Shown here piece by piece: positions 45,712 through 62,546 of a stretch of 64,000 bases of DNA (position 1 is the stretch's first letter; each line of letters opens with the position of its first letter). The notes beneath the pieces were generated by a model, which worked only from the letters and a program-made list of their open reading frames with translations, was not told the origin of the DNA and did no database searches. Origin of the DNA: Micromonospora luteifusca. Lineage in GTDB: Bacteria; Actinomycetota; Actinomycetes; Mycobacteriales; Micromonosporaceae. The translations under genes and the position numbers were made by a program. The stretch lies in contig NZ_JAFBBP010000001.1 of the NCBI RefSeq assembly GCF_016907275.1, positions 248,001 to 312,000 of the forward strand, read 5' to 3'.

Positions 45712-46176
45712 TCAACGACCGGTGGCTCCGTAGAGCCGGCTGACCGTCTCGGCCACGCAGACGGGCTTGCCGCCGCTGTCGCTCTCCACGGTGACCGCCG
45801 CGACCAGTTGCACGCCGCCGATCACCGGGGACACGTCGGCGATGGTGGCGGTGGCCCGTACGGACGCGCCGACCCGCACCGGGGCAGGGAAGCGCACCCG
45901 GTTCAGCCCGTAGTTGACCCCCATCGCCACCCCCTCGACCCGGTAGAGCCCGCCGGCCAGCGCCGGCAGCAGCGACAGCGTCAGGTACCCGTGGGCGATC
46001 GTCCCGCCGAACGGACCCGCCGCGGCCCGGGCCGGGTCGAGATGAATCCACTGGTGGTCGTCGGTGGCGTCGGCGAAGAGGTCGACGCGGCCCTGCTCGA
46101 TGCGCTGCCACGGACCGGGCCCGAGGCTCTCGCCGACCGCGGCCGCCAACTCCTCGAACGAGCTGAAGACTCTCAT
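45712..46176 (-). CDS. MaoC/NodN-like (R)-hydratase
   Basis: A 154-residue hot-dog-fold protein. It shows the hydratase motif FADATDDHQWIHLDPARAAA with the catalytic Asp/His pair, GGTIAHGYLTLSLLPAL, and NYGLNRVRFPAPV, the pattern of MaoC/NodN-type enoyl-CoA hydratases. It would hydrate an enoyl-CoA formed by the acyl-CoA dehydrogenase just upstream (17-bp gap), so the two make consecutive beta-oxidation-type steps. The acyl chain is not identifiable. The ATG follows AGGAGACC. Confidence 0.9.
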   Translation of the reverse strand: MRVFSSFEELAAAVGESLGPGPWQRIEQGRVDLFADATDDHQWIHLDPARAAAGPFGGTIAHGYLTLSLLPALAGGLYRVEGVAMGVNYGLNRVRFPAPVRVGASVRATATIADVSPVIGGVQLVAAVTVESDSGGKPVCVAETVSRLYGATGR

Positions 46177-46193: not shown

Positions 46194-47342
46194 CTAGAAG
46201 GCGTTGACGCCGGTGAGCGCGCGTCCGATGAGGAGTTGCTGGATCTGGCTGGTGCCCTCGTAGAGGGTGGCGACCCGGGCGTCGCGCAGGTACTTGCCGA
46301 CCGGGTATTCGTCGATGTAGCCGTACCCACCGAAGACCTGGACCGCATTGTTGGCCGCGCGGACGGCGGCCTCGCTGGCGAAGAGCTTGGCCATCGACGC
46401 CTCGGTCGCGAACGGCTGGTCGCGGTCGATCAGGTCGGCCACCTGCCACACCAGCAACCGGGCGGCGGCGGTGTCCACCGCGATGGCGGCGAGCAGTTGT
46501 TGGACGAGCTGGTGGCCGGCGATCGGCTTGCCGAACTGGGTCCGTTGCCCGGCGTAGCCGACTGCGGCGTCGAGGCAGCCCTGGGCGATGCCGACACAGC
46601 CGGCGGCCACCGACATCCGGCCCTTGGCAAGGGTCGCCAGGGCGAGCCGGAACCCGCTGCCCTCGGCGCCGAGCCGGGCGGTGTCGGGCACCCGCACCTC
46701 GTCGAAGCGAAGCTCGCCGGTCGCCTGGCCGCGCAGGCCCAACTTGCCGTGGATCTCCCGGCGGGTCAGGCCCGGGCTGTCGGTGGGCACCAGGAACGCG
46801 GTGATGCCCCGGTGTCCGGGGCCGCCGGTGCGGGCGAAGACCAGTGCGACGTCGGCGGTGGTGCCGTTGGTGATGAACGTCTTCGTGCCAGTGAGCAGCC
46901 AGTCGGCGCCATCGCGAACCGCGCGGGTCCGCAGTGCGGCCGCGTCGGAGCCGCTGTCCGGCTCGGTCAGCGCGAAACAGCCGAGTGCGGTGCCGGCGCA
47001 GAGTCGGGGCAGCCACTCGGCTCGCTGCGCGGCCGTCCCTTGGGCGGCGATCGACTTCGCGACCAGGCCGAGAGAGACCGAGACGATGCCGCGCACCGCC
47101 GAGTCGCCCCGGCCGAGCTCCTCCAGGACCAGGCAGTACGCGACGTGATCGCCACCGGAACCGCCGTCGGCCTCGGCAATGGTCAGCCCCAGGAAGCCCA
47201 GGTCGCCAAGCATCGCGACGATGGCCGGGTCGACCGACTCGCGCCGGTCCCAGGCGGCGGCGTGCGGCACCAGCTCGCGGTCGGCGAACTCCGCCGCCAA
47301 CTGGCGGACCGCGGCCTGCTCGGCGGAGAGGGTCAGCTCCAT
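46194..47342 (-). CDS. Acyl-CoA dehydrogenase
   Basis: A 382-residue FAD enzyme. Standard motifs are visible: CFALTEPDSGSDAAALRTRA (flavin and substrate contacts), WLLTGTKTFITNGTTADVAL, QLVQQLLAAIAVDTAAARLL, and near the C-terminus QVFGGYGYIDEYPVGKYLRD followed by the LYEGTSQIQ segment. The catalytic base in short- and medium-chain enzymes is the Glu of that LYEGTSQ segment. It should oxidise an acyl-CoA to the 2-enoyl-CoA. A TAAACTA-N7-TAGTTTA repeat precedes it, a possible operator for the TetR or LuxR regulators nearby. Confidence 0.95.
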   Translation of the reverse strand: MELTLSAEQAAVRQLAAEFADRELVPHAAAWDRRESVDPAIVAMLGDLGFLGLTIAEADGGSGGDHVAYCLVLEELGRGDSAVRGIVSVSLGLVAKSIAAQGTAAQRAEWLPRLCAGTALGCFALTEPDSGSDAAALRTRAVRDGADWLLTGTKTFITNGTTADVALVFARTGGPGHRGITAFLVPTDSPGLTRREIHGKLGLRGQATGELRFDEVRVPDTARLGAEGSGFRLALATLAKGRMSVAAGCVGIAQGCLDAAVGYAGQRTQFGKPIAGHQLVQQLLAAIAVDTAAARLLVWQVADLIDRDQPFATEASMAKLFASEAAVRAANNAVQVFGGYGYIDEYPVGKYLRDARVATLYEGTSQIQQLLIGRALTGVNAF

Positions 47343-47403: not shown

Positions 47404-50190
47404 TCACCGGTCGGAGGCCAACCCGGCGTGCCGCTCGGTGGTGAACGCGCGGGCCAGCTCGGTGCGCGAGCGGATGCCAAGTCGGTGGAACACGTTGCGC
47501 AGGTGGTGGTCGACCGTACGGGTGGACAGGAACATCCGGGCGGCGATCTCCCGGTTGGTGGCTCCCTCCACGACCAGCTCGGCGATCCGCAGTTGCTGGC
47601 CGGTCAACAGTCGCGCCGCCGGCAGGTCCGGCGGACCGACCGACTCCCCGGCCGCACGCAGCTCCGTGGTGGCCTGCTCAGCCCAGCACGCCACCCCGAG
47701 CAGGCTGAACATCTCGCGGGCCTGGTGCAGGTGGGTACGCGCATCCCGAGGGCGTCGGCTGCGCCGCAGCTCCTGACCGAAGAGCAGCTCGGTGCGGGCC
47801 CGCTCGAACGTGCCGGCCTCCGCCGGGTGCAACCGCAACGCCGTCTGGAAATCCCGTTCCGCCTCGGCGCCGCCCCGCGGTGCGAGCAGCGCGTGGCACC
47901 GGGCGGACAGGGCCCGGCGCAACGGGCTCGCGGTGCTGCTGGCCCAGCGGTCGAAGACGGCGAGCGCTGCCGTTGCCGCCGGTCGGTGCGCCAGGTGAGC
48001 CGCCGCCTCCACCAGATAGGGGGTCGCCATCACCTGCACGAGGACCTGACCTCGACCGGTGCCGAGCCGGGCCAGCGAGGCCAGCCGGTCCGCCGCCTCG
48101 GCGTGCCGGCCGTCGATGAGGTCGAGCACCGCCAGGGCCCACCCGGCGAACGCGTGCGGACGGCTGCCCGGCGTCGGTGACTCGCCGATCTCACGGAGGT
48201 GTCGCAGGCTGGTGTCGCGGTCGGCCCGGATCGCGGCGAGCACGGCGAGCATGCCCAGATGGACGTTGGCGCAGTTGACCTGACCCGAGGCGCGGGCGAC
48301 CCGTAGCCCGTCGCGGGAAGTTTCCGCCGCCGCCTCGTGCCGGCCCAGCCAGTACTCGGCGACCGCCCGCAACTCCAGCGCCCGGGACAGCACGGACAAC
48401 TCGCTCCGCTCCCGGGCCAATCCGACAGCGCGTTCGGCGAGCCGGTGGGCCGCACCGTCCACGGCCACCACCAGGCCCGCCGCCGCCGCGGAGTTGAGCG
48501 CGGTGGGGGTCAGCGCCGGCCCGGTCAACCGGCCGCCCAGCACGACGGCGCGACGCAGCGCGGGGCCGGCCCGCTCATGGTCACCCCGCAGGGTCGCCGC
48601 CACCCCGGCGACCAGACAGCCCATCAACTCCATGGCCGGCGGGTCGGTCGGTCGCCGCAACGCCAGCGCCCGACGGCCGACCTCGGCGTACCGGTACTGG
48701 TCACCGGCGAAGCAGACGGCCTCGCCGGCCCGCACCAGCCCGGACAGCGCCAGAGCGCGGTCGGTACCAGCCACCGCCGTGGCGGCGGTCAGCAACGTGA
48801 CAGACGCTCCGGACGCGCCGCCGCAGCGCAGCTCCAACTCACCGTGCAGCAGGTCGGCGCGGCCCCGGACGACCGGGTCCCTGGAGACGGCGCGGAGGCG
48901 GTCGAGCAGCAGTCGGGCCATGTCGGGTTGGCCCCCGGCCCAGGCATAACGAGCCGCGGCCAGCAGGCGGGCGGCCGTCTGGGTGGGATGCCCGCTGAGG
49001 TCCGCGGCCCAACGCAGCGCCGCCGAGGCGGTGGCCCAGTCGCCGACCCCGCCGGCCGCTGCCTCTTCCAGCTCGGTGGCGAGGGCCGGATCGGCGCCGG
49101 CCGTCGCGGCGGCGAGGTGCATGGCCCGGCGCAACCGCTGCCCGTCCGCGACCAGCACCCCGGCGAGTAGTCGGTGCGCCGCGCGGCGCTCGGCGAGTGG
49201 CGCGCTGGCCGCGATCATCGTGCGGACCAACGGCTGGGGGAAGGTGACGCCCCGCGGTTCGACGCGGACCAGGCCGGCGACCTCCGCCGGGGCGAGCGCC
49301 TCGACCTCGGTGCCGGCCGCCCCCGCGGCCCGGATCAGGGTGCCCGGCTCACCGACCTCGTCGAGCGCGGCGAGCAGCAGCACCCGCCGGGTGTCCGGCG
49401 GCAACCGGTCCAGGCGGGCCCGGTACGCACGGCCCAGCGCACCGTCCGCCGGCGGCGCGGCGGGCAGCGCCTCCTCCCCCCGGCACTGGGCCGGGCTGAG
49501 CACCTCGGCGAGGTCCACCAGGGCCTGCGGGTTGCCGCCGCCGATCGCGGCCAGCGCGGTCATCACCGACGCGGCAGGCCGCTCGGGCAGGCGGTCGGTG
49601 AGGACGGCGACGCTGCTCCACTCGTCGAGCGGCCGGAGCCGGTACGCCGGTATCCCGTCGACCGTGACGGTGACGTCCGCGGTGAGCAGGACGACAACCG
49701 GTAGGTGTCGCAGCCGGCGGGCCACGAAGGCCAGCACCTGTGCGGTCTGCGGATCACCCCGGTCGACGTCGTCCATGCTGACGAGGATCGGACGGTCCCC
49801 GGCGGCGCTGGCGAGCAACCCGAGGACCGCCATGCACAACGTCAGCTGGCGGTCGGCCGGGCAACTCTCTCCGGCAAGCGCGCGCCGCAGCACCCGGCGC
49901 TGCTCGTCCGGCAGGACGGCGGCACGGTGGAGCACCGGGTCGAGCAGGCGTTGCAGGCCGGCGTACGGCAGTTCGGCCTCCTCGGCCAGTCCGCTCGCGG
50001 CGAGCACGGTGCAACCCTCGGCGTACCGGTGGGCGTGGCCGACCAGCGCGGTCCGGCCCGAGCCCGGCTCGCCGTGCAGCAGCACGGCCCCACCGCCGCC
50101 GGTCACCCCGTCGAGCAGACTCCGGACAGCCTGCCACTCATCGTCCCGGCCACGCAGCACGGTTAGTTGCACTCTTGATGCAGTAACCAT
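47404..50190 (-). CDS. LAL-type LuxR regulator with AAA ATPase domain
   Basis: A large regulator of about 928 residues. An N-terminal ATPase domain has Walker A LLHGEPGSGRTALV (about residues 35-48) and Walker B PILVSMDDVDRGD. The middle 500 residues are helical, TPR-like. A C-terminal LuxR HTH reads LLTGQQLRIAELVVEGATN and then STRTVDHHLRNVF. LAL regulators (MalT-like) usually activate catabolic or secondary-metabolite operons on binding an inducer. Position inside the acyl/Liv block suggests control of these genes. The start is uncertain: ATG 50190 gives MVTASRVQL, while GTG 50205 is five codons longer; neither has a clear ribosome site. Confidence 0.88.
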   Translation of the reverse strand: MVTASRVQLTVLRGRDDEWQAVRSLLDGVTGGGGAVLLHGEPGSGRTALVGHAHRYAEGCTVLAASGLAEEAELPYAGLQRLLDPVLHRAAVLPDEQRRVLRRALAGESCPADRQLTLCMAVLGLLASAAGDRPILVSMDDVDRGDPQTAQVLAFVARRLRHLPVVVLLTADVTVTVDGIPAYRLRPLDEWSSVAVLTDRLPERPAASVMTALAAIGGGNPQALVDLAEVLSPAQCRGEEALPAAPPADGALGRAYRARLDRLPPDTRRVLLLAALDEVGEPGTLIRAAGAAGTEVEALAPAEVAGLVRVEPRGVTFPQPLVRTMIAASAPLAERRAAHRLLAGVLVADGQRLRRAMHLAAATAGADPALATELEEAAAGGVGDWATASAALRWAADLSGHPTQTAARLLAAARYAWAGGQPDMARLLLDRLRAVSRDPVVRGRADLLHGELELRCGGASGASVTLLTAATAVAGTDRALALSGLVRAGEAVCFAGDQYRYAEVGRRALALRRPTDPPAMELMGCLVAGVAATLRGDHERAGPALRRAVVLGGRLTGPALTPTALNSAAAAGLVVAVDGAAHRLAERAVGLARERSELSVLSRALELRAVAEYWLGRHEAAAETSRDGLRVARASGQVNCANVHLGMLAVLAAIRADRDTSLRHLREIGESPTPGSRPHAFAGWALAVLDLIDGRHAEAADRLASLARLGTGRGQVLVQVMATPYLVEAAAHLAHRPAATAALAVFDRWASSTASPLRRALSARCHALLAPRGGAEAERDFQTALRLHPAEAGTFERARTELLFGQELRRSRRPRDARTHLHQAREMFSLLGVACWAEQATTELRAAGESVGPPDLPAARLLTGQQLRIAELVVEGATNREIAARMFLSTRTVDHHLRNVFHRLGIRSRTELARAFTTERHAGLASDR

Positions 50191-50254
50191 GCATGTCAGT
50201 GTCACTCATCGGAAACCGAATGGAAAGAGGGGGCGAAATCGGGCCGGCCCGGAA

Positions 50255-50890
50255 TCAGTCGACCGCGACCTCGGCGAGCAGGGCGCCCACGGTGCGGGTC
50301 ATCACCGCGCGGGCCTGATCCACGCCGAGCCCGAGGCCGTAGCGCAGCATCGACCAGGCCGGCCACATGCTCGCGGCCACGAGGGCGTTGAGCAGTTGCT
50401 CCCGCCCCTGGCCGGCCTGGGTCAGCTCGACGGCGAAGAGTTCTTCGACCTCGTCACGCACCCGGTCGATGTGCTTGAGGCGGTTGCGGTGCAGTTGGTC
50501 GGAGACCGGCTCGCGCATCTGGGCGGCCCGCGCCGACGGTGTGATGAGCTGGAGCAGCCGGGCCCGTTGCCGGCAGTACGCGTCGACCCGCTTGGCCAGC
50601 GGCAGCCCCGGTGAGATCGGCCGGTAGGCGGCGTCCTGCTGGCGGAGCACCTCCGCGCCGCTCGCCTCGAAGAGCGTCTCCATGTCCTTGAAGTTGGTCC
50701 AGAGCGTCCGCAGCGAGATGCCGGCCCGTTCGGCGATGCGTTCCCCGGTCGGGCGGAGGTCGCCCTCGGAGATGAGCGCGAGATGCGCCTCGACGATGGC
50801 CACGCGGGTGCGCTCGGCCCGGGCGGTGCGCCCGTCGATCCGGCCCGCGACCTCGACCCCGTCCATCCGCCCTCGCCCCTTCACCCCCAT
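50255..50890 (-). CDS. TetR-family transcriptional regulator
   Basis: A 211-residue TetR protein. The HTH (residues about 22-68) includes GERIAERAGISLRTLWTNF, a variant of the usual GVSxGTLYxxF recognition helix, followed by a helical ligand domain. It lies between an SDR and the LuxR regulator on the same strand. By comparison with similar actinobacterial clusters it may sense the acyl-CoA or acid handled by the neighbouring acyl-CoA dehydrogenase, MaoC and Liv genes. Start choice between 50890 and 50866 is open. Confidence 0.88.
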   Translation of the reverse strand: MGVKGRGRMDGVEVAGRIDGRTARAERTRVAIVEAHLALISEGDLRPTGERIAERAGISLRTLWTNFKDMETLFEASGAEVLRQQDAAYRPISPGLPLAKRVDAYCRQRARLLQLITPSARAAQMREPVSDQLHRNRLKHIDRVRDEVEELFAVELTQAGQGREQLLNALVAASMWPAWSMLRYGLGLGVDQARAVMTRTVGALLAEVAVD

Positions 50891-50960: not shown

Positions 50961-51728
50961 TCATCCGGCCCGGCCGGACAGCGAGACGCCCCCGTCGCAG
51001 ACGATGGTCTGCCCGGTGATCCAGCCGGCGTCGTCGGAGGCCAGGAAGGCGACCGCGCCCGCCACGTCCGGCGGCAGACCGAGGCGACCGAGCGGGTACC
51101 GCGCCGCGACCTCGTCCTCCCGGCCCTCGTAGAGGGCGGCGGCGAAGCGGGTCTTCACCACGCCGGGGGCGACCGCGTTGACCCGGATCGCCGGACCCAA
51201 CTCCACGGCGAGACTGGCGGTGAGCAGGTTGAGCGCGGCCTTGCTCACCCCGTAGAAGGCGATGCCGGGCGACGGTCCGAGCGCGGAGATCGACGAGACG
51301 TTGACGACGCAGCCACCGCGCTCGGCCATGCCGGCGGCGCAGACCTCCTGCACCCAGCCGAGCGCGGCGACCACGTTCACGTCGAGGATCTTGCGTGCCG
51401 CCGCCAGGTCCAGCCCGACCAGCGGGCCGTGCACCGGGTTGATGCCGGTGTTGTTGACCAGGAGGTCCACCGGCCCGAACGCCGCACCGACCTGTTGCAC
51501 GGCGGCAGCTCGGTGCTCGGGGTCGTCGGCGCGCCCGGGCACGGCGATGGCGTACTCCGGCCCGCCCAGGGCGGCAACCGCATCGGCCAGCGCCTCGGGA
51601 CGTCGGGCGGTCAGACCGACCCGGGCGCCTTCGGCAACGAGGCGTTGGGCGATGGCCAGGCCGATGCCTCGACTGGCGCCGGTGACGATGGCGACACGAT
51701 CAACGAGGCGGCCCTTATATGCATCCAC
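50961..51728 (-). CDS. Short-chain dehydrogenase/reductase (FabG-like)
   Basis: A 255-residue classical SDR. TGASRGIG is the cofactor motif, LLVNNTGINP the NNAG region, and the catalytic Ser lies in NVSSISALGP. YGVSKAALN is the Tyr/Lys pair, and GRLGLPPDVAGAVAFLASDD and GQTIVCDGG the usual C-terminal signatures. FabG-like enzymes in such clusters oxidise a 3-hydroxyacyl-CoA or a related alcohol, fitting the step after the MaoC-like hydratase. The start codon is GTG 51728, giving MDAYKGRLVDRV. Confidence 0.92.
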   Translation of the reverse strand: MDAYKGRLVDRVAIVTGASRGIGLAIAQRLVAEGARVGLTARRPEALADAVAALGGPEYAIAVPGRADDPEHRAAAVQQVGAAFGPVDLLVNNTGINPVHGPLVGLDLAAARKILDVNVVAALGWVQEVCAAGMAERGGCVVNVSSISALGPSPGIAFYGVSKAALNLLTASLAVELGPAIRVNAVAPGVVKTRFAAALYEGREDEVAARYPLGRLGLPPDVAGAVAFLASDDAGWITGQTIVCDGGVSLSGRAG

Positions 51729-51874: not shown

Positions 51875-53161
51875 TCAGGAGACGGTCGGCACCCCGTTCG
51901 CCGGTGGCGCGACCGGTGCGGCGGTGTACTCGTTGACCGGCCCGTCCGCCTCGTCGGTCTCGTACGCCGGCCCGAAGTAGCTCTGCACTCCCCCGGTCAC
52001 CCGGCTCAGCCGCTGCCCGCCGTACCCGGAGTGGTCCTTGGCGGAGAAGCGCAGCGGCACCAGCCCGGGGCCCTGGAAGCCACCCTTCTGCACCGCCTCG
52101 AGCACCTTCTCCCGAGTGAGGTCCTTGCCGGCGGCGAGCAACGTCTGCACGAAGAGATAGCCGACCGACATGCCGTAGACGGTGTTGCCGTCGAACGGCG
52201 CGTCCCCGTTGTACTCCTTATTGATCTTCGTGAAGAGCTGCACCCACGGGTTCGCTGTGTCGTTCTGCATCGGCAGGTAGTTGGTGCCCACCATGCCCTC
52301 CAGGATCGGGGCGGCGGCACCGAGTTGCTTGGCCAGGGTCGGGTGGTCGGCGCCGACGTTGGAGACCAGCCACTGCGCCTTGAAGCCCAGCCGCGCGGCG
52401 GTGCCGATCGACAGCGCGGTGAAGCCGGGCACGGTGGCGAGCACGACGACCTTGCAACTGGCGGCCTTGAACGCGCCGATCTGCGGCGCCACGTTGGTAT
52501 TGCTGGTGACGTAGGTCTGCTTGACCGCCACGGCCCCGGCACCGAGCACCTTCTCCACACCGGCCAGGCTGTCCCGGCCGAAGTCGTCGTCCTGGCCGAG
52601 GAAGCAGACCTTCTGACCGGCCAGGTTCGTCTTCGCGTAGGTGGCGAGGATCTTGCCCTCGACGGTGTAGTCCGGGTTGAACCCGAACGTGCCGGGGTAC
52701 TTGTCCGGTTGGTCCCAGCTGCGACTACCGGAGGCGACGAAGAGGTCGGGCACCCGGTTGCTCTTGAGGAAGTCGAGCACTCCGGTGTGCGTCGGCGTCC
52801 CGAGACCATTGAGGATGGCGAAGACCTTGTCCTGCAGGACGAGCTGACGGACCACCTGCTGGGTGTTCGCCGGGTTGTAGCCGTCGTCCATGATCTTGTA
52901 GGTGATCTTTCGACCATGCACACCGCCCTGGGCGTTGACAAAGTCGAAGTACGCCTTCGTCGCCGGAGCGATCTTCGAGTAGCCGGCCGAGGCCGGGCCG
53001 GTCAGCGGCATGTGTGTGCCGACGGTGATCTCGGTGTCGGTGACGCCCGGCACCGATGCTCCGCCGGGACCGGAGCCGTCGTCACCGCTGCAACCGGCGG
53101 CGGTGACCAACAAAGCGATGGTGCTGGCGATCGCGAGACCACGTTGTGCCAAACGGTGCAT
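51875..53161 (-). CDS. Branched-chain-amino-acid-type substrate-binding lipoprotein
   Basis: A 428-residue lipoprotein with lipobox TAAGC (about residue 24) followed by a Gly/Asp-rich spacer. A type I periplasmic-binding fold of the LivJ/Peripla_BP_6 family follows: EITVGTHMPLTGPASAGYSK, then AYFDFVNAQGGVHGRKI. The ligand need not be an amino acid: in actinobacteria these proteins also bind aromatic acids, short acids or steroid fragments, and the neighbouring acyl-CoA genes favour such a substrate. It is the last gene of the Liv operon on the minus strand, 84 bp after livM. ATG 53161 is preferred to GTG 53170, which overlaps the ribosome site. Confidence 0.92.
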   Translation of the reverse strand: MHRLAQRGLAIASTIALLVTAAGCSGDDGSGPGGASVPGVTDTEITVGTHMPLTGPASAGYSKIAPATKAYFDFVNAQGGVHGRKITYKIMDDGYNPANTQQVVRQLVLQDKVFAILNGLGTPTHTGVLDFLKSNRVPDLFVASGSRSWDQPDKYPGTFGFNPDYTVEGKILATYAKTNLAGQKVCFLGQDDDFGRDSLAGVEKVLGAGAVAVKQTYVTSNTNVAPQIGAFKAASCKVVVLATVPGFTALSIGTAARLGFKAQWLVSNVGADHPTLAKQLGAAAPILEGMVGTNYLPMQNDTANPWVQLFTKINKEYNGDAPFDGNTVYGMSVGYLFVQTLLAAGKDLTREKVLEAVQKGGFQGPGLVPLRFSAKDHSGYGGQRLSRVTGGVQSYFGPAYETDEADGPVNEYTAAPVAPPANGVPTVS

Positions 53162-53245
53162 GGAAAACACCGACCTTTCTCGGTCCGGTAATTGAGGGAA
53201 CGGTGTGGTGGTGGGGTGCCCGGCGGAGGCCGGGCGGGGAACAGC

Positions 53246-54358
53246 TCAGGAACGCCGGGCCGGCCATCGGGCGAGCAGGCTCCGGCCGAGACGCGACAGC
53301 AGGCCCTGCACCCCGCCGGGTGCGGCGATCATGACGACGATCAGCGTGAGCCCGAAGATCGCCAGCGGCAGGTTTCCCTCCAGCCGCTGCGCCACCGCGG
53401 GCGAGAGCGTGAACAGTTCGGTCACGGAGTGGGTGAGGTCGGGCAGGGCGACCAGCAGCACAGCCCCCCACAACGCGCCGGTGAGGCGACCGAGACCGCC
53501 GATCACCACGGCCATCAGTAGGAACAACGACAGGGTCAGCGAGAACGCTCCGGGAGAGACGCTCTGCGCGAGGACCGCCAGCAACGCCCCGCCGAGCCCG
53601 GCGGTGGCGGCACTGACCACGAATGCGAGGACCTGGGTGCGGGCCACGTGGATACCGGCGAGGCGGGCCGCCACCTCGTCGTCGCGGACCGCCCGGAAGG
53701 AGCGCCCGTACCGGCTGCGGACCAGGTTCGCCAGCAGCAGCAGGGCCAGCAGGGTGGCCGCGCCGGTGAGCCAGAGCTGCCACCGCTCGTACGGGAAGTA
53801 CGGGCCGAGCGACAGCGGCGGCGGCTCCACCGGCACCGACAACCCCTGCTCGCCGTTGAACACACCGTCGAAGGTGACGGCCAACGCCGGCACGACGATG
53901 GCCACGGCGAGGGTGACCCCGGCCAGGTAGGGGCCGCGCAGCCGGGCCGCCGCCACACCGACCACCGCGCCGACCGCGACCGTGCTGACGATCGCCGCGC
54001 CGAGCGAGAGCGGCAACAGCCAGCCACCGGTCATCCCCCGGTCGGCGAACGCGTTCTGACACAGAGCCACGGTGTACGCCCCGGTGGCCATCAACGCGCC
54101 GTGCCCGAGCGAGAGTTGCCCGTTGAGCCCGGTGAGGACGGTCAGCCCGGCGGTCGCGCAGAGGTAGGCGGCCACCGTGGCGAGCTGGAAGTTGCGGAAC
54201 GGCTCGACGGCGTAGCTGACCGCCACCAGCACCAGCCCGACGGCGAGCACCACCGCGAGGTGGCGCAGCAGGGTCGAGCCGAACCGGCGGTCGACCGGTC
54301 GGTCACCAGCCTCGACCGGCTGGTGCTTCGGCGGCAGGGCCGCCCTCGTGGCGCTCAC
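53246..54358 (-). CDS. livM: Branched-chain amino acid ABC permease LivM-type
   Basis: A 370-residue membrane protein with about 9-10 helices. It carries the LivM signature NGQLSLGHGALMATGAYTVA and an EAA-like loop in SRYGRSFRAVRDDEVAARLAG (region about residues 205-225). Its GTG start overlaps the livH stop (GTGA). A longer frame extends upstream through livH in another phase and is not used. Together with LivH it forms the membrane channel powered by LivG and LivF. Confidence 0.93.
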   Translation of the reverse strand: MSATRAALPPKHQPVEAGDRPVDRRFGSTLLRHLAVVLAVGLVLVAVSYAVEPFRNFQLATVAAYLCATAGLTVLTGLNGQLSLGHGALMATGAYTVALCQNAFADRGMTGGWLLPLSLGAAIVSTVAVGAVVGVAAARLRGPYLAGVTLAVAIVVPALAVTFDGVFNGEQGLSVPVEPPPLSLGPYFPYERWQLWLTGAATLLALLLLANLVRSRYGRSFRAVRDDEVAARLAGIHVARTQVLAFVVSAATAGLGGALLAVLAQSVSPGAFSLTLSLFLLMAVVIGGLGRLTGALWGAVLLVALPDLTHSVTELFTLSPAVAQRLEGNLPLAIFGLTLIVVMIAAPGGVQGLLSRLGRSLLARWPARRS

Positions 54359-55233
54359 ACCCGCCTCGCAGCAACCGGGGCGAACAGCCCACCGGGCCGG
54401 ACCAGCAGCACCGCCAACAGCAGGACCAGCACCGCGAGCGGCGTGAGGTCGCTGCCGGCGTAGCCGCTCACGTAGGAGAGCAGCAGACCCACCACCAGGC
54501 CGCCGACCACCGCCCCCGGTGGACTGTCCAGCCCGCCGACCACCGCCGCGGTGAACGCCGAGACGAACACCAGGTCCATCGCGTGCGGATGCAGACCCAG
54601 CTCGGTCGGCATGACCAGCATGGCGGCCAGCGCGCCCACCCCGGAGGCGAGCGCCCAACCAAGGGTCAACATGCCACCGACGTTGACCCCGAGCAGCCGG
54701 GACACCTCAGGAGCGAAGGCCGCCGCGCGCATCCGCAGCCCGACCGGGGTACGGGCGAACATCCAGGCCAGGCCGCTCACCACCACCCCGATCGCGGCGA
54801 AGACGAACAGGTCGTACGGCGACAGCACGGCGACTCCGCCCACGGTGAGGGCGGACCGACTGAACGGCGCCTCTGCGGGGCGGAACTCGTTGCCGTACAC
54901 CATGCCCAGCACCGCCTGGATCAACAACACCAGACCGAGCGCGACGATCACGGGGTTGAGTGGTGAGGCGTGGTCGACGTGCCGCATCACGACGCGGTCG
55001 ACGAGCGCACCGAGCAGCAGTCCGGCGACGATCGCGACCGCGAAGCCCAGCCAGTAGGAGCCGGTCGTGGTCGAGACGGTGTAGGCGACGTACGCGGCGG
55101 CGACGGCCATCGCCCCCTGGGCGAAGTTGACGACCCGAGCCGCCCGCCAGATGAGCACCAGGGCCAGCGCGAACGCGGCGTACACCGCGCCCCGGGACAG
55201 GCCGTCGACGGTGAGGAAGACGAAGCGGTCCAA
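54355..55233 (-). CDS. livH: Branched-chain amino acid ABC permease LivH-type
   Basis: A 292-residue permease of about eight helices with the LivH signatures YAAFALALVLIWRAARVVNF, AQGAMAVAAAYVAY and GGLDSPPGAVVGGLVVGL. The start appears to be TTG 55233, 8 nt after GGAGG, giving MDRFVFLTVDGLSRG. It lies 30 bp after livF and overlaps livM. The gene order livG-livF-livH-livM-binding protein is standard for HAAT-family importers. Confidence 0.93.
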   Translation of the reverse strand: MDRFVFLTVDGLSRGAVYAAFALALVLIWRAARVVNFAQGAMAVAAAYVAYTVSTTTGSYWLGFAVAIVAGLLLGALVDRVVMRHVDHASPLNPVIVALGLVLLIQAVLGMVYGNEFRPAEAPFSRSALTVGGVAVLSPYDLFVFAAIGVVVSGLAWMFARTPVGLRMRAAAFAPEVSRLLGVNVGGMLTLGWALASGVGALAAMLVMPTELGLHPHAMDLVFVSAFTAAVVGGLDSPPGAVVGGLVVGLLLSYVSGYAGSDLTPLAVLVLLLAVLLVRPGGLFAPVAARRV

Positions 55234-55263: not shown

Positions 55264-55986
55264 TCAGAAACCGAGGTACGCATGGCGCAGGTCGACGTCG
55301 TCACGCAGTTGCACCGCCGGGGCGGCGATCACCACCCGGCCGAGGGACATCACCACCCCCTGGTCGGCGACGGCGAGTGCGCTGCGGACGTTCTGCTCGA
55401 CCAGCAGCACGGTCAGGCCGGTGCTGTCGCGCAACTGGCGGAGCAGGGCCATGGTCCGGGCGACCACCCGCGGCGCCAGGCCGAGCGACGGCTCGTCGAG
55501 CAGCAGCAGTCGGGGTCGGCCGACCAGGGCCCGGCCGAGCGCGAGCATCTGCCGCTCACCGCCGGAGAGCTGGTGGCCGAGGTGCCGGCGACGTCGGGCC
55601 AGGGGTTCGAAGAGCTGGTAGACCTCGTCGAGCGCGCGAGCGGCGTCGGCCCGGTCGCGCCGCCATAGCCCGCCGAGTCGCAGGTTCTCGTCGACCGTCA
55701 ACTCGCTGATCACGCCCCGCCCCTCCGGCACGTGCGCCATGCCGCGCCGGACGAGCTGCTCCACGGGCGTACCCCGGAGTTCCTCGCCGGCGAGGAGCAC
55801 CTGGCCCGCCGCCGGGCGGATCATGCCGGAGAGCGCGCGCAACAGGGTCGTCTTGCCGGCGCCGTTGGCACCGACGACCGCGGCGATCGTGCCGGCCGTG
55901 ACGGTGAGGTCGATGGCCTGCAGCACGGGCGCGGCGCCGTAACCAGCGACCAGCCCGCGCACGACGAGCAGGTCCGGCGCGCTCAT
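55264..55986 (-). CDS. livF: ABC ATPase LivF-type
   Basis: A 240-residue ATPase with Walker A VVGANGAGKTTLLRAL, signature LSGGERQMLALGRAL, Walker B LLLLDEPSLGLAP, and LLVEQNVRSALAVADQG near the switch His position, where LivF-type ATPases commonly have the V-E-Q sequence. Overlaps livG by four bases (ATGA). It powers uptake with LivG. Confidence 0.95.
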   Translation of the reverse strand: MSAPDLLVVRGLVAGYGAAPVLQAIDLTVTAGTIAAVVGANGAGKTTLLRALSGMIRPAAGQVLLAGEELRGTPVEQLVRRGMAHVPEGRGVISELTVDENLRLGGLWRRDRADAARALDEVYQLFEPLARRRRHLGHQLSGGERQMLALGRALVGRPRLLLLDEPSLGLAPRVVARTMALLRQLRDSTGLTVLLVEQNVRSALAVADQGVVMSLGRVVIAAPAVQLRDDVDLRHAYLGF

Positions 55987-56771
55987 GCGGCTTCACTGTC
56001 GACGGCGGCACCCAGGTAGGCGTCGGTTACCGCCGGGTCGTCACGGATCTCGTCCGGAGCGCCGGTGGCGATGACCCGGCCGAAATCGAGCACCACGATG
56101 TCGTCGCAGACGGCCATCACCAGGTCCATGTGGTGCTCGACCAGGAGCACGGCACAGGGATCGGTGTCGCGCCGGGGCAACTGGCGGACCAGCTCAGCCA
56201 GCTCGGCGATGTCGTCGGCGCCGAGGCCACCGGCGGGCTCGTCGAGCAGGAGCAGCCGGGGCCGGGCGGCGAGCGCGCGGGCCAGTGCGACCCGCTGGCG
56301 TACGGCGAAGGGCAGTGTGGTCGGGGCGGCCCCGGCGTGGCCGGCGATCCCCAGGTCGTCGAGGATGTCCAGGGCGTGCCGACGCAGCCGGCGCTCGTCG
56401 CGATCGCTGGCCGGAAGCCCGAGCAGCGCCGAGACGAAGCCCGCGCGGGCGGTGTGTGCGGCGCCGGTCATCACGTTCTCCAGCACGGTGAGCCCGGCGA
56501 AGAGCCCGGTGCCCTGCAGGGTCCGGGCGATGCCGAGCCGGGTCAGCTGGTGCGGCCGTGGCCGTAACTTCCTGCCGTCGAGGGTGAGCGCACCCGTCTC
56601 CGGCGCGATGAAACCGCAGATCACGTTGAAGAGCGTGGTCTTGCCGGCGCCGTTGGGCCCGATCACGCCCACCACCCGGTTGGGTGGCACCCGCAGTGAG
56701 ACGTCGTCAAGGGCGGTGAGGCCGCCGAAACGGACGCCGATGTGGTGCAGTTCGAGGCCGCGCTCCATCAC
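55983..56771 (-). CDS. livG: ABC ATPase LivG-type
   Basis: A 262-residue ATPase with Walker A GVIGPNGAGKTTLFNVICGF, the LivG-specific LTRLGIARTLQGTGLFAGLT segment, a degenerate signature region LPFAVRQRVALARALAA (normally LSYGQQR) and Walker B LLLLDEPAGGLG. The altered signature is unusual but retains the RVALARAL part. It is the first gene of the operon. A TACACT-CGC-AGTGTA palindrome lies 29 bp upstream. Confidence 0.94.
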   Translation of the reverse strand: MMERGLELHHIGVRFGGLTALDDVSLRVPPNRVVGVIGPNGAGKTTLFNVICGFIAPETGALTLDGRKLRPRPHQLTRLGIARTLQGTGLFAGLTVLENVMTGAAHTARAGFVSALLGLPASDRDERRLRRHALDILDDLGIAGHAGAAPTTLPFAVRQRVALARALAARPRLLLLDEPAGGLGADDIAELAELVRQLPRRDTDPCAVLLVEHHMDLVMAVCDDIVVLDFGRVIATGAPDEIRDDPAVTDAYLGAAVDSEAA

Positions 56772-56799
56772 CCATCCCTCTGTCGTGGCGGGTGTTATT

Positions 56800-56814
56800 T
56801 ACACTCGCAGTGTA
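56800..56814. promoter_or_regulatory. Palindromic operator upstream of livG
   Basis: TACACT-CGC-AGTGTA is a perfect 15-bp palindrome within an AT-rich patch (56795-56820) just ahead of livG. The form is typical of TetR-family operators; the TetR encoded at 50255-50890 is the nearest candidate binder. Confidence 0.65.
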
Positions 56815-56866
56815 CGTTTCTCGGGTATCGCGTCAAGACCCTTCGATGCCGGCCCCGCACAGGCGA

Positions 56867-56897
56867 AAGGGGCGGTCGCCGGTGGCGACCGCCCCTT
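56867..56897 (-). terminator. Terminator of the cutinase gene
   Basis: AAGGGGCGGTCGCC (56867-56880), loop GGT, GGCGACCGCCCCTT (56884-56897): a perfect 14-bp stem 10 bp after the cutinase stop codon in the direction of transcription. Confidence 0.78.
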
Positions 56898-56906
56898 CTG
56901 TCACGG

Positions 56907-57797
56907 TCAGGCGCTGGGGCAGGTGTTGCGGTACTCCTCGATCTGCGAGCCGCTCGGGCCGGGGCAGAGGAACTGCTCGTAGCGTGTGTCGTCGTCGACG
57001 AACCGCTTCAGCCAGGCCACCATCTGCCGTGCGGTCGGCGTGTTCGTCGTCTGCGGGAAGAAGTGGCTCGCCCCGTTCAGCTCCAGGTACGCCTTCTCGG
57101 CGGAGGCCGGGATGCTGTTGTAGAACGGCACCGAGTGCGACGAGACCGGCGCGACAGTGTCGCTCTCGCCACCGATGATGAGCGTCGGCACCCGCAGTTC
57201 GGACCAGGTCTTGTCGGTGTTCCACGGTGCGAGCGGCACCGCGGCCTGCAACGACGGCCGCGACGAGGCCGCTTCCAGGCTGCCCCCGCCGCCCATGGAG
57301 TGGCCGGCCACCGCGAGTCGACTGCTGTCGATCCGGGTACGCACCGAACTGCGCTGGGTGAGGTAGTCCAGCGCGGCGAGCAACTGCCGCCCCCGACTGT
57401 CCGGCTGGTCCAGACGGCTGTTGGTCTCGATGCCGATCACCACGAAACCGTGCGAGGCGATCCGCGGCCCGAGCCAGCTGATGCTGGACCAGGCTGCGGT
57501 GTAGCCGGGCGAGATGGCGACGGCGCCGAAGGTGCCCTCGCTGGTGCTGGTCGGGTAGTAGATGACGCCGCCGCCGAAGCCGGTGACGCTCAGCGACGAC
57601 ACGCTCTGCGAGGCCGTGGCGAACGGACCGCGACTGGCCTCCAAAATCGAGGTGGTCGGGGCCGGGCCCCGCTCGTACGGGCCCGCGGCCTGCGCGGCGC
57701 CGGTCGGTCCGGTCAGGACGACGCCGGCGACGAGGGTGGCGGCCAGCGCGAGCCGGGCGGCCACGGAACGGGGACGGGTGGTGGTTGGTGAGGACAC
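56907..57797 (-). CDS. Secreted cutinase / polyester (PET-type) hydrolase
   Basis: A roughly 296-residue secreted alpha/beta hydrolase. The signal peptide ends at about residue 37 (AAQAAG). The mature start [20 protein letters not shown] and FGGGVIYYP closely resemble Thermobifida cutinases TfCut2/Cut190. The triad is Ser in [11 protein letters not shown], Asp in [11 protein letters not shown] and His in [10 protein letters not shown]. Binding-site residues known from those enzymes are visible: Tyr in SPGYTAAW, Met in GHSMGG, Trp in APWNTDKTW. Two Cys (QFLCPG and NTCPSA) form the conserved C-terminal disulfide; the extra PETase disulfide is not seen. GTG 57797 fits the AGGGAG site better than GTG 57806. 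Natural substrate: plant cutin or other polyester. Confidence 0.93.
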
Positions 57798-57982
57798 GTC
57801 GGGCACTCCCTAAAGTCGAGGGATATCGACGTGCGTCAGTTTTGGCCCTCTCCGCCGATCCACGCATCGGTGAAATCACCAGTCCCGGCCGCGGACGCCG
57901 AGATCACTTGTGTTTCGACCTCCTGACCACGGGTAGCAGGGCAGGCGCCGGCCCACCCACGCGCCACGGAGAGGTTCGTTCA

Positions 57983-60244
57983 GTGGATTCAAGCAAGCCC
58001 GCCGAGGCGGTCAAGAACGCCGTGAAGGCAGCCTCAGGAAAGATCGCCGACGCCCTGACCCCGGATGTCCCGGGCGCGCCGGGAAGCGCGCCGCCGACCG
58101 TCGAGGAGCCGACGACGCCGCACGACCCGCTGCCGCCGAAGCCGGAACAGGGGGCACAGCAGACGCGTACGCCGACCGGCGCCAAGACCGGTGCGCCGGC
58201 CACCGCGAACGGTCAGCAGGGTGCCTACCTGACGACCGCGCAGGGGGCTCGGCTGCGCGACACGGACCACTCGCTCAAGGCCGGCCCGCGCGGCCCGGTG
58301 CTCCTGCAGGACCACCACCTACGCGAGAAGATCACGCACTTCGACCACGAACGCATTCCGGAGCGCGTGGTGCACGCCCGGGGCGCCGGCGCGCACGGTG
58401 TCTTCACCGCGTACGGCACCGCCGAGGCGGTCACCAGGGCCGGCTTCCTCAAGAAGGGGCGCGAGACCGAGGTCTTCGTCCGGTTCTCCACCGTGCTCGG
58501 TTCGCGGGGTTCGGCCGACACGGTCCGCGACACCCGTGGCTTCGCCACGAAGTTCTACACCGACGAGGGCACCTTCGACCTGGTCGGCAACAACATCCCG
58601 GTCTTCTTCATCCAGGACGCGATCAAGTTCCCGGACATCATCCACGCCGGCAAACCGCACCCGGACCGGGAGATCCCGCAGGCGCAGAGCGCCCACGACA
58701 CCTTCTGGGACTTCGTGTCGCTGCACACCGAGGCGCAGCACCACACCATCTGGAACATGTCCGACCGGGGCATCCCGCGTTCGTACCGGACGATGGAGGG
58801 CTTCGGCGTGCACACCTTCCGCCTCGTCAACGAGGCCGGGGAGACGGTGCTGGCCAAGTTCCACTGGAAGCCGAAGCTGGGCGTGCACTCGTTGACCTGG
58901 GAGGAGGCTCAGCTGCTCGGCGGCATCGACCCGGACTTCCACCGCCGCGACCTCTACGACGCCATCGAGGCCGGCGCGTACCCCGAGTGGGAGCTGGGCA
59001 TCCAGGTCTTTCCGGACACTCCCGAGGAGACCTTCGCCGGCATCGACCTGCTGGACCCGACGAAGATCGTGCCGGAAGAGTTGGCCGAGGTGCAGCCGAT
59101 CGGGCGGCTGGTGCTCAACCGGACCCCGACGAACTTCTTCGCCGAGACCGAACAGGTCGCCTTCCACCTCGGTCACCTGCCCCCGGGCATCGACGTCACG
59201 AACGACCCGCTGTTGCAGGGCCGACTCTTCTCGTACGTCGACACGCAGCTCACCCGGCTGGGTGGGCCCAACTTCTCGCAGATCCCGATCAACCGCCCGC
59301 ACGCCGCCGTGAACGACATGCTGCGCGACGGCTTCCACCAGCACGCCGTGCACGCGGGCGTCGCGCCGTACCGACCGAACTCGCTCGACGGCGGCAACCC
59401 GTTCCCCGCCGGGGACGCCGAGCACGCCTTCGTCGACGTGCCGGTCACGGTCGCGCAGGCACCGAAGGTCCGCGCGAACCCGGCCTCGTTCGACGACCAC
59501 TACAGCCAGGTCCGCCTGTTCTGGCTGAGCATGTCGCCGGTCGAGAAGGAACACATCATCCGGGCGTACACCTTCGAACTGGGCAAGTGTTACCACCAGG
59601 CGATCAAGGAGCGGCAGCTGCGGAGCCTCGCCAACATCGACCCGGTGCTCTGCGAGCAGGTCGCCACCGGCCTGGGCCTGCCCGCGCCGCAGCCGACCGT
59701 GCCGCTCGCCGACGTCACACCCAGTCCGGCGTTGTCGCAGGTCGGTCGGGATTGGCCGAGTGACGGCCGCATCGTCGGGATCGTCGTCGACCCGGACGGC
59801 GATCTGGACGGCGTCGACGAGGTCCGCCGGACCGTGTTCGACGCCGGCATGGTGCCGCTGCTGATCGCCCCGCACGGCGGCATGGTGGGCGACCTGCCGG
59901 TGCAGCGCACCTTCGCCACCGCCCGGTCGGTCGAGTTCGACGCGGTCCTGCTGGCCGGAGCGCCGGCACCCGCACCGGACGCCCTGCCCGCCCGCGACGC
60001 CAAGGCGGGCAGCCCGGACCCGGCCACCGTGGACCCCCGTGTGCTGCTGCTCGTCGAGGAGTGCTGGCGGCACGCCAAGGCGATCGGCGCCTGGGGTGGC
60101 GGCGTCACCGTGCTGGAGCAGGCCGGTGTCGCCGGCACCCCCGGCGTCGTGGCGGCGGCATCGGGCGCCGAGGCGCTGACGGCGGTGCAGCAGTTGATGG
60201 CCGCGCACCGGGTGTGGGAACGGTTCCCGGCGTCGGTCGCCTGA
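57983..60244 (+). CDS. katE: Large-subunit (clade 2, HPII-like) catalase
   Basis: A 753-residue catalase, far longer than the 480-500 residues of small-subunit types. The Ala/Pro-rich N-terminal extension covers about 1-75. The catalytic core (about 80-560) has distal His in [11 protein letters not shown], Asn in [18 protein letters not shown] and the heme-ligand Tyr in [17 protein letters not shown]-terminal flavodoxin/DJ-1-like domain (about 590-745) is typical of HPII. GTG 57983 follows GGAGAGG; longer frames upstream overlap the divergent cutinase gene. It disproportionates hydrogen peroxide in the cytoplasm, usually in stationary phase or under stress. Confidence 0.95.
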
Positions 60245-62353: not shown

Positions 62354-62546
62354 CTGTGGCACCCGGAGAGGCTACCTGTCCCGCCGGGCGCGCAATTTTT
62401 GGCAGGCTGAGAAGGGCCGCCAGGTGACCTGGGTCATTCCCTTCCGGGCACATTTTTTCGGGGCCCCGAGCCGGTGCCGGCGCACCGATGGTCCATCCGG
62501 AATCGCTCTTTGTGGACAGTGGCCGCCGGCACCGCCGCAACAGGGT

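What the first reader, a model, noticed from the sequence alone, without database searches (positions are those of the whole stretch)
56907..57797. Cutinase closely resembling known PET hydrolases
The mature protein carries the distinctive segments of Thermobifida-type cutinases: PYERGPAPT near the start, [45 protein letters not shown] and the terminal disulfide. The canonical Tyr/Met/Trp aromatic-binding residues are kept. Differences worth testing are NTDK after the Trp, where TfCut2 has HLNK, and [14 protein letters not shown] in the loop after the catalytic His.
Basis: partly seen in the sequence, partly recalled or inferred. Interest (0 to 1): 0.7.

Follow-up and report, generated by a model that had tools for sequence, protein, structure and literature searches.

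The report
Ordinary cutinase, unusual conserved gene neighbourhood
The gene is an ordinary secreted plastic- and cutin-degrading enzyme of a soil bacterium, but it sits in a conserved set of genes that looks built to switch the enzyme on, import the released fatty acids and burn them, which hints at the natural job of this enzyme family.

Summary
Window 56907-57797, minus strand, encodes a secreted PETase-family (PF12740) cutinase of a Micromonospora, with triad, Tyr/Met/Trp pocket and terminal Cys pair intact. It is a common gene of the genus. It is nearer to the PET- and PCL-active Thermomonospora curvata type (74%) than to T. fusca cutinase 1 (64%), LCC (58%) or IsPETase (50%).

The new part is the neighbourhood. 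(1) An 18-bp box, CYGGTGATTTCRCCGATG, lies upstream of 105 of 127 cutinase genes (at most 2 mismatches), is absent from 800 kb of control strands, and occurs once exactly in this genome. (2) A ~900-aa LAL/LuxR regulator sits near the gene across families, like the known Streptomyces lipA-lipR pair. (3) In Micromonospora and several Pseudonocardiaceae the cutinase precedes a 'branched-chain amino-acid' type ABC importer, with overlapping ATGA junctions in some. Acyl-CoA dehydrogenase, MaoC, acyl-CoA ligase, SDR or TetR genes join it, and in one genome a class-2 lipase takes the cutinase slot.

Best reading: a LAL-activated, TetR-controlled locus that hydrolyses ester polymers or lipids, imports the fatty or hydroxy acids and beta-oxidises them. 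Importer substrate and regulation are inferred.

The parts
56907..57797 (-). Secreted PETase-family (PF12740) cutinase; GTG start 57797 (alternative GTG 57806)
57865..57882 (-). 18-bp box CTGGTGATTTCACCGATG (palindromic core GGTGATTTCACC), 67 nt upstream of the cutinase start; candidate LAL/LipR-type activator site
56867..56897 (-). Strong hairpin directly after the cutinase stop (terminator-like): MFE -33.5 kcal/mol, z -5.0 for the stretch 56860-56912
56797..56836 (-). livG promoter-like region: TTGACG, 16 nt, TACACT, with the palindrome TACACTGCGAGTGTA (within 56797-56815) over the -10-like hexamer; candidate TetR operator
55983..56771 (-). livG-type ABC ATPase
55264..55986 (-). livF-type ABC ATPase
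54355..55233 (-). livH-type permease
53246..54268 (-). livM-type permease (open frame runs on to 54658; true start not resolved)
51875..53170 (-). Lipoprotein-type substrate-binding protein, Peripla_BP_6
50961..51728 (-). Short-chain dehydrogenase/reductase
50255..50890 (-). TetR-family regulator (TetR_N just below its gathering score: 22.1 against 24 bits)
47404..50205 (-). LAL-type LuxR regulator (AAA_16 + GerE, 933 aa), LipR-like
46194..47342 (-). Acyl-CoA dehydrogenase
45712..46176 (-). MaoC-like (enoyl-CoA hydratase type) protein

Best explanation
The gene is a standard type-I actinobacterial cutinase/polyesterase, secreted by a Sec-type signal. It heads a roughly 12-kb minus-strand locus for using ester polymers or lipids. 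The LAL/LuxR protein (LipR-like) activates the cutinase through the 18-bp box. The enzyme frees aliphatic acids outside the cell. The substrate-binding protein plus LivFGHM importer takes them in. The acyl-CoA dehydrogenase, MaoC hydratase and SDR (with an acyl-CoA ligase, local in some relatives) feed them to beta-oxidation. TetR represses the importer operon at the TACACT-N3-AGTGTA palindrome. Shown here: enzyme family and residues, gene order and its conservation, box and palindrome conservation, co-location counts. Inferred: that the LAL binds the box, that TetR binds the palindrome, that the importer carries fatty or hydroxy-fatty acids, and that cutin, suberin or lipid is the natural substrate. 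PET activity is likely but incidental.
For: Enzyme. Importer downstream on the same strand (livG 3-2589 nt after the cutinase match) in 34 of 80 named loci; stop/start ATGA overlap in both Kibdelosporangium loci, Actinophytocola L074 and L065. In 200 genomes of the order, pairs within 10 kb: cutinase-SBP in 14 of 37 genomes with both, cutinase-LAL 20 of 42, SBP-LAL 12 of 45, about 0.2-0.3 pairs expected each; class sample cutinase-LAL 15 of 34, 0.23 expected. In 20 control windows the best LAL match was 66 bits and the best LivG/LivF match 99 bits at 34% (15 of 16 importer-panel hits shown). Linkage lies on several deep transporter branches, at least 5 forced changes; Kibdelosporangium and Amycolatopsis cutinases share one clade with transporters from different clades. 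Box: 105/127 at <=2 mismatches on the sense strand (87/109 outside the set that gave the motif), 3/127 antisense, 0 in controls; it goes with LAL presence, Fisher p 2e-4. Palindrome follows this TetR. Catabolic genes: acyl-CoA dehydrogenase pair between cutinase and livG in 8 named loci, class-2 lipase in the cutinase slot of L113 behind an exact box, acyl-CoA ligases; LAL-ACAD-MaoC contiguous in 7 of 10 linked relatives. lipA-lipR precedent: PMC12134079.
Against: 46 of the 80 named loci show no downstream importer in the fetched flank (some flanks end early). A strong hairpin separates the cutinase from livG here, so they are not one simple operon in Micromonospora. 8 of 90 loci with a LAL lack the box and 23 of 37 without a detected LAL have it. 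The window TetR and the Pseudonocardiaceae TetR_C_36 proteins gave no blastp match. Only 8 of 40 importer-bearing loci L091-L130 have an acyl-CoA ligase nearby. No ligand evidence exists for the importer: for the SBP and permeases NCBIfam gives only sub-cut-off urea/BCAA-type similarity. Sampled species share ancestry, so the chance figures overstate independence. No experiment was run.
Confidence: 0.6

Rival explanations
1. Stand-alone scavenging cutinase: the importer, regulators and beta-oxidation genes are neighbours by descent only.
For: Separate transcription units in Micromonospora suggested by the hairpin after the cutinase and a promoter-like site for livG; 46 of 80 named loci show no importer in the fetched flank; Amycolatopsis decaplanina L067 has a near-identical cutinase without it.
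Against: Linkage on several deep transporter branches; different transporter clades beside cutinases of one clade; ATGA overlaps; an unrelated lipase in the same slot behind the same box.
Confidence: 0.22
2. Aromatic-polyester locus: the enzyme serves PET-like or aromatic ester polymers (for example suberin aromatics) and the importer carries aromatic acids such as terephthalate or hydroxycinnamates.
For: T. curvata relatives hydrolyse PET; some SBPs of this superfamily are known to bind aromatic acids (recalled, not tested).
Against: Partner genes in window or relatives are acyl-CoA dehydrogenases, long-chain-type acyl-CoA ligases (below curated cut-offs), MaoC and a class-2 lipase, which fit aliphatic acids; the T. 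curvata enzymes hydrolysed PCL far faster than PET (table 3). Terephthalate genes were not searched.
Confidence: 0.12
3. The importer is what its annotation says, a branched-chain amino-acid transporter unrelated to ester hydrolysis.
For: Family assignment: LivFGHM with Peripla_BP_6.
Against: SBP and permease scores are far below the curated BCAA and urea cut-offs; recurrent association with a secreted esterase, a LAL regulator and acyl-CoA genes.
Confidence: 0.08

Closest known systems
Thermomonospora curvata polyester hydrolases (Tcur1278/Tcur0390; PDB 7ykq is called T. curvata in PMC11485624)
   Same: 74% mature identity to 7ykq; Asn after Trp, FFPQ after the catalytic His, Asn at the T. 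fusca D204 position
   Different: 7ykq has Phe at the aromatic-pocket Tyr and Leu for Thr in NTDK; thermophile. Which Tcur gene 7ykq is was not checked, and the T. curvata neighbourhood was not examined (T. catenispora L077 has the box and a LAL 4.8 kb away)
Thermobifida fusca cutinase 1 / BTA-hydrolase 1, LCC, IsPETase
   Same: Fold family, triad, Trp, Met, C-terminal Cys pair
   Different: 64, 58 and 50% identity; separate tree set; T. fusca acidic trio D174/D204/E253 (Ca site, recalled) reads E/N/E here
Streptomyces lipA-lipR operon (review PMC12134079, passages; primary papers not held)
   [quoted passage not shown] the S. exfoliatus lipase 1jfr is in this protein family (413 bits)
   Different: Here the pair is joined to an ABC importer, TetR, SDR, acyl-CoA dehydrogenase and MaoC; LAL at the far end of the locus. 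That 1jfr is the lipA product is recalled
LivFGHM/LivK-type (HAAT) ABC importers
   Same: Gene order and families
   Different: Linked to a secreted esterase; substrate unknown. Best solved SBP relative in three SBP clades is 4n03, which I recall as deposited as a fatty-acid SBP of T. curvata; no call shows that title

Membership tests
PETase / type-I actinobacterial cutinase (PF12740) | Whole-domain match above the gathering score | tested here: met
   416.4 bits against 28
PETase / type-I actinobacterial cutinase (PF12740) | Ser-Asp-His triad in GHSMG, Tyr/Met/Trp, one C-terminal Cys pair, His before Ser and Phe after the catalytic His (type-I marks, PMC11219463) | tested here: met
   type-I marks from the passage
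PETase / type-I actinobacterial cutinase (PF12740) | Placement among actinobacterial cutinases | tested here: met
   tree of 93 rows, 26 near-duplicate loci left out by hand
PETase / type-I actinobacterial cutinase (PF12740) | Hydrolysis of PET, PCL or cutin | not testable with these tools
   needs expression and assay
NCBIfam NF051441 BHET hydrolase (equivalog) | Score above the curated cut-off 520 | tested here: not met
   494 bits; best match of its library but not filed as a member
lipA-lipR type locus | PETase-family lipase gene with a LuxR-family LAL gene in the same cluster | tested here: met
   LAL 6.7 kb downstream on the same strand; adjacent in many relatives
lipA-lipR type locus | LAL and lipase adjacent, in one operon | tested here: not met
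   In the window the LAL is separated by the importer operon; so 'lipAR-like', not lipAR
lipA-lipR type locus | Activator binds a conserved sequence upstream of the -35 | tested here: inconclusive
   Conserved 18-bp box found; binding not tested; the published LipR site was not available
HAAT ABC importer | Two ATPases, two permeases, Peripla_BP_6 SBP in one cluster | tested here: met
HAAT ABC importer | Substrate is an amino acid | not testable with these tools
   no ligand data; curated BCAA and urea cut-offs not reached by SBP and permeases

The most novel reading that the evidence does not exclude
Actinobacterial PET hydrolases are the outer, regulated part of ester-to-fatty-acid uptake systems: a LAL regulator with an 18-bp box devoted to the cutinase promoter, and a LivFGHM-type ABC importer for fatty, hydroxy- or dicarboxylic acids that has been recruited beside the cutinase on more than one transporter lineage. 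This would give the family a natural role and reveal a fatty-acid importer outside the Mce and FadL types.
Probability: 0.45. Interest if true: 0.75.

Novelty: new variant of a known kind. Interest (0 to 1): 0.55.

Why it matters
To my knowledge the natural substrate and control of PET-hydrolase-family enzymes are poorly known, although the enzymes are heavily engineered. The box gives a one-line genome query for these promoters, the LAL gives a handle for finding the natural inducer, and the linked importer and acyl-CoA genes point to aliphatic acids as the true product. The enzyme itself adds another natural sequence near the T. curvata type but nothing unusual.

Tried and rejected
Rejected: the idea that NTDK and FFPQ mark a special PET enzyme (clade-wide). 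Rejected: counting 'Rhodococcus rhodnii' L065 as a separate family; its WhiA and GapA are 99% and 91% identical to Kibdelosporangium, so the record is probably mislabelled. Rejected: that L052 must be DP043, the crystallised Actinoplanes sp. DH11 enzyme of PMC12455559; that genome holds four clear family members and I could not tell which one it is. Led nowhere: search for 7YKO/7YKP/7YKQ/8GZD papers (one hit); structure prediction of the SBP (switched off). Terephthalate-catabolism genes were not searched. One search's check of the window used a wrong record and was redone. Counting: the match rows were retyped by hand and LAL rows of many genomes without a cutinase or SBP were left out, so one search's own denominators for LAL (38 and 38) were too low; one search recounts them as 42 and 45 from the genome tables. 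One search's row list was cut, so some LAL places (for example G013, G142) were never seen. Literature on the cutinase-importer or cutinase-LAL link: the listings showed no paper on the importer link and, for the regulator, the Streptomyces lipAR review; the primary lipAR papers are not held, so the box may already be described there for Streptomyces.

Full report
1. THE OBSERVATION. The ORF at 56907-57797 is real and lies on the minus strand. PF12740 PETase scores 416.4 bits against a cut-off of 28. NCBIfam's BHET hydrolase equivalog scores 494 against a cut-off of 520, so I do not file it there. GTG 57797 looks the better start: by eye the AGGGAG site is spaced for it, and the upstream GTG 57806 is missing in relatives L007, L022 and L050. 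The host is a Micromonospora: the named ones among the 120 listed best database hits are Micromonospora; the genome is one 7.16-Mb contig.

2. THE ENZYME IS ORDINARY. 136 of 151 sampled genomes of the genus have a match at E<=0.001; many of these are distant, but 87 of 151 have one of 80% identity or more, two of them partial (my count of the rows). Mature identity: T. curvata 7ykq 74%, 8eu1 72%, T. fusca cutinase 1 64%, LCC 58%, own paralogue 57%, IsPETase 50%. The 93-row tree (26 near-duplicate loci left out by hand) places it with Micromonospora, next to Actinoplanes and Asanoa, apart from the LCC/T. fusca/IsPETase/8eu1 set (several long branches there). Triad S170, D216, H248 and pocket Y102, M171, W195 are kept; N196 and F250 are each in 120/120 listed near homologues. 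The T. fusca acidic trio D174, D204, E253 reads E, N, E here, so a Ca effect should be tested, not assumed. T. curvata enzymes hydrolyse PCL and PET nanoparticles (PMC4231364, part 2 of 5 of the text read). A related Actinoplanes sp. DH11 enzyme, DP043, was picked among the most performant of a PET screen and crystallised (PMC12455559, passages and part 1 of one section). A Micromonospora PET hydrolase is known: Mipa-P, described as lacking the type-I His and Phe that this protein has (PMC11219463, one passage).

3. THE NEIGHBOURHOOD. Downstream on the same strand come livG, livF, livH, livM, a Peripla_BP_6 binding protein, an SDR, TetR, a 933-aa LAL (AAA_16 + GerE), an acyl-CoA dehydrogenase and a MaoC hydratase. 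Of 80 named loci fetched with the protein, 34 have livG on the same strand 3-2589 nt after the cutinase match: Micromonospora/Verrucosispora, Catelliglobosispora, Amycolatopsis, Kibdelosporangium, Actinophytocola, and 'Rhodococcus rhodnii' L065, probably a mislabelled Kibdelosporangium. In the Pseudonocardiaceae the genes are 44-64% identical to the window's, yet order and strand are kept; L074 shows only the first importer genes and in L006 and L035 the contig ends within the cluster. In L065, L072, L074 and L082 the cutinase stop overlaps the livG start (ATGA). In Amycolatopsis (by eye) and in the window a GC-rich hairpin lies between.

4. IS IT MORE THAN CHANCE? In 200 genomes drawn from the order, pairs within 10 kb occur in 14 of 37 genomes holding both cutinase and SBP, 20 of 42 for cutinase and LAL, and 12 of 45 for SBP and LAL; about 0.2-0.3 pairs would be expected each. 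A class-wide sample of 246 gives cutinase-LAL in 15 of 34. The two samples share some genomes, only the top 3-4 LAL candidates per genome were scored and the LAL listing was cut, so the counts are rough, and related genomes are not independent. In 20 control windows of 20 kb from ten of the same genomes the best LAL match was 66 bits and the best LivG/LivF match 99 bits at 34%. Across 108 fetched cutinase loci a LAL (over 150 bits) was found in 75, in three arrangements: downstream same strand, upstream same strand, upstream divergent. This genome has one other full-length relative of the LAL, at 35%.

5. PARTNER EXCHANGE. 'Linked' needs at least 5 changes on the SBP tree (73 rows) and on a LivG+F+H tree of chosen loci (54 rows). 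Kibdelosporangium/Actinophytocola and Amycolatopsis cutinases form one clade (100/99), but the Kibdelosporangium and Amycolatopsis transporters fall in different supported clades. Either the linkage is old and often lost, or it was made more than once; both argue for a functional tie. Amycolatopsis decaplanina L067 has the cutinase without the importer in its flank.

6. THE BOX. Footprinting showed a near-invariant stretch upstream of the cutinase. The consensus CYGGTGATTTCRCCGATG is found at <=2 mismatches in 105 of 127 upstream regions (53 exact), on the sense strand; 87 of the 109 regions that did not serve to define it, and 77 of 79 named loci. Antisense 3 of 127; reversed motif 0; 0 in 800 kb of control strands; with up to 4 mismatches the controls gave 16. 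Some unnamed loci duplicate named ones. Named genera with it span Micromonosporaceae, Streptosporangiaceae, Thermomonosporaceae and Pseudonocardiaceae. In this genome it is exact once, at the cutinase; three other sites have 3 mismatches. Of 90 loci with a LAL in the flank 82 have the box; of 37 without, 23 (p 2e-4; not corrected for relatedness). [quoted passage not shown] So the regulator pairing is known there; its spread through the cutinase family and this box are what the calls add.

7. TETR. The palindrome TACACTGCGAGTGTA overlaps the -10-like hexamer of a TTGACG-N16-TACACT site before livG, and is conserved in the window and 18 aligned relatives (3 mismatches in L034). It is also present (<=2 mismatches) in six importer clusters without a cutinase that carry the related TetR (L113-L118), and absent (>=4 mismatches) in eight clusters without that TetR (L082, L108, L111, L112, L119-L122).

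8. WHAT IS IMPORTED? Eight named Micromonospora/Verrucosispora loci carry two acyl-CoA dehydrogenases between cutinase and livG. In L113 (G209, same family) the cutinase slot holds a class-2 lipase (PF01674, signal-like N-terminus by eye) just after an exact box, followed by importer, TetR and an acyl-CoA ligase. 8 of 40 importer-bearing loci L091-L130 have an acyl-CoA ligase over 200 bits; the control windows had none above 127 bits. In L121 a box (2 mismatches) lies just before livG. LAL-ACAD-MaoC is contiguous in 7 of 10 linked relatives, looser in 2, and in 1 the ACAD was not found; in 4 relatives without the importer link neither ACAD nor MaoC was found in the roughly 15 kb after the LAL. 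These partners fit aliphatic acids. The best solved SBP relative in three SBP clades is 4n03, which I recall as a fatty-acid SBP; no call shows its title.

9. JUDGEMENT. The enzyme is a new member of a known family. The locus is a variant of lipAR joined to an importer and beta-oxidation genes. What is shown is gene content, order, conservation and co-location; function is inferred.

Noticed in passing
L002:1243-2844 (G000:C1:777380-778252): The genome's second PETase-family protein (57% over the aligned mature part) carries a C-terminal ricin-B lectin domain, has Tyr in place of the pocket Trp, and showed no box at up to 5 mismatches in the 1.8 kb searched.
   Followed up: partly
L065 (JOAA01000015.1): Record labelled Rhodococcus rhodnii NRRL B-16535 looks like Kibdelosporangium: WhiA 99%, GapA 91% identical.
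   Followed up: partly
window 24192-45328, minus strand: GH67, GH3 and GH10 genes with a sugar-type binding protein lie just beyond the locus, a glucuronoxylan-type set; GH10 also follows the locus in L199.
   Followed up: no
window 57785-60244, plus strand: Large catalase (with Catalase_C) divergent from the cutinase; found beside it in 12 of the 80 named loci, all Micromonospora. Its true start probably lies well inside the ORF.
   Followed up: partly
window 60314-62362, minus strand: Ser/Thr kinase-like ORF whose C-terminus reads like a ricin-B lectin repeat (by eye; no family search run).
   Followed up: no
L033, L080 (Nonomuraea): LivG/F/M-like genes at 34-47% lie about 4-6 kb upstream of the cutinase, with a LAL between, possibly a further importer association.
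   Followed up: no
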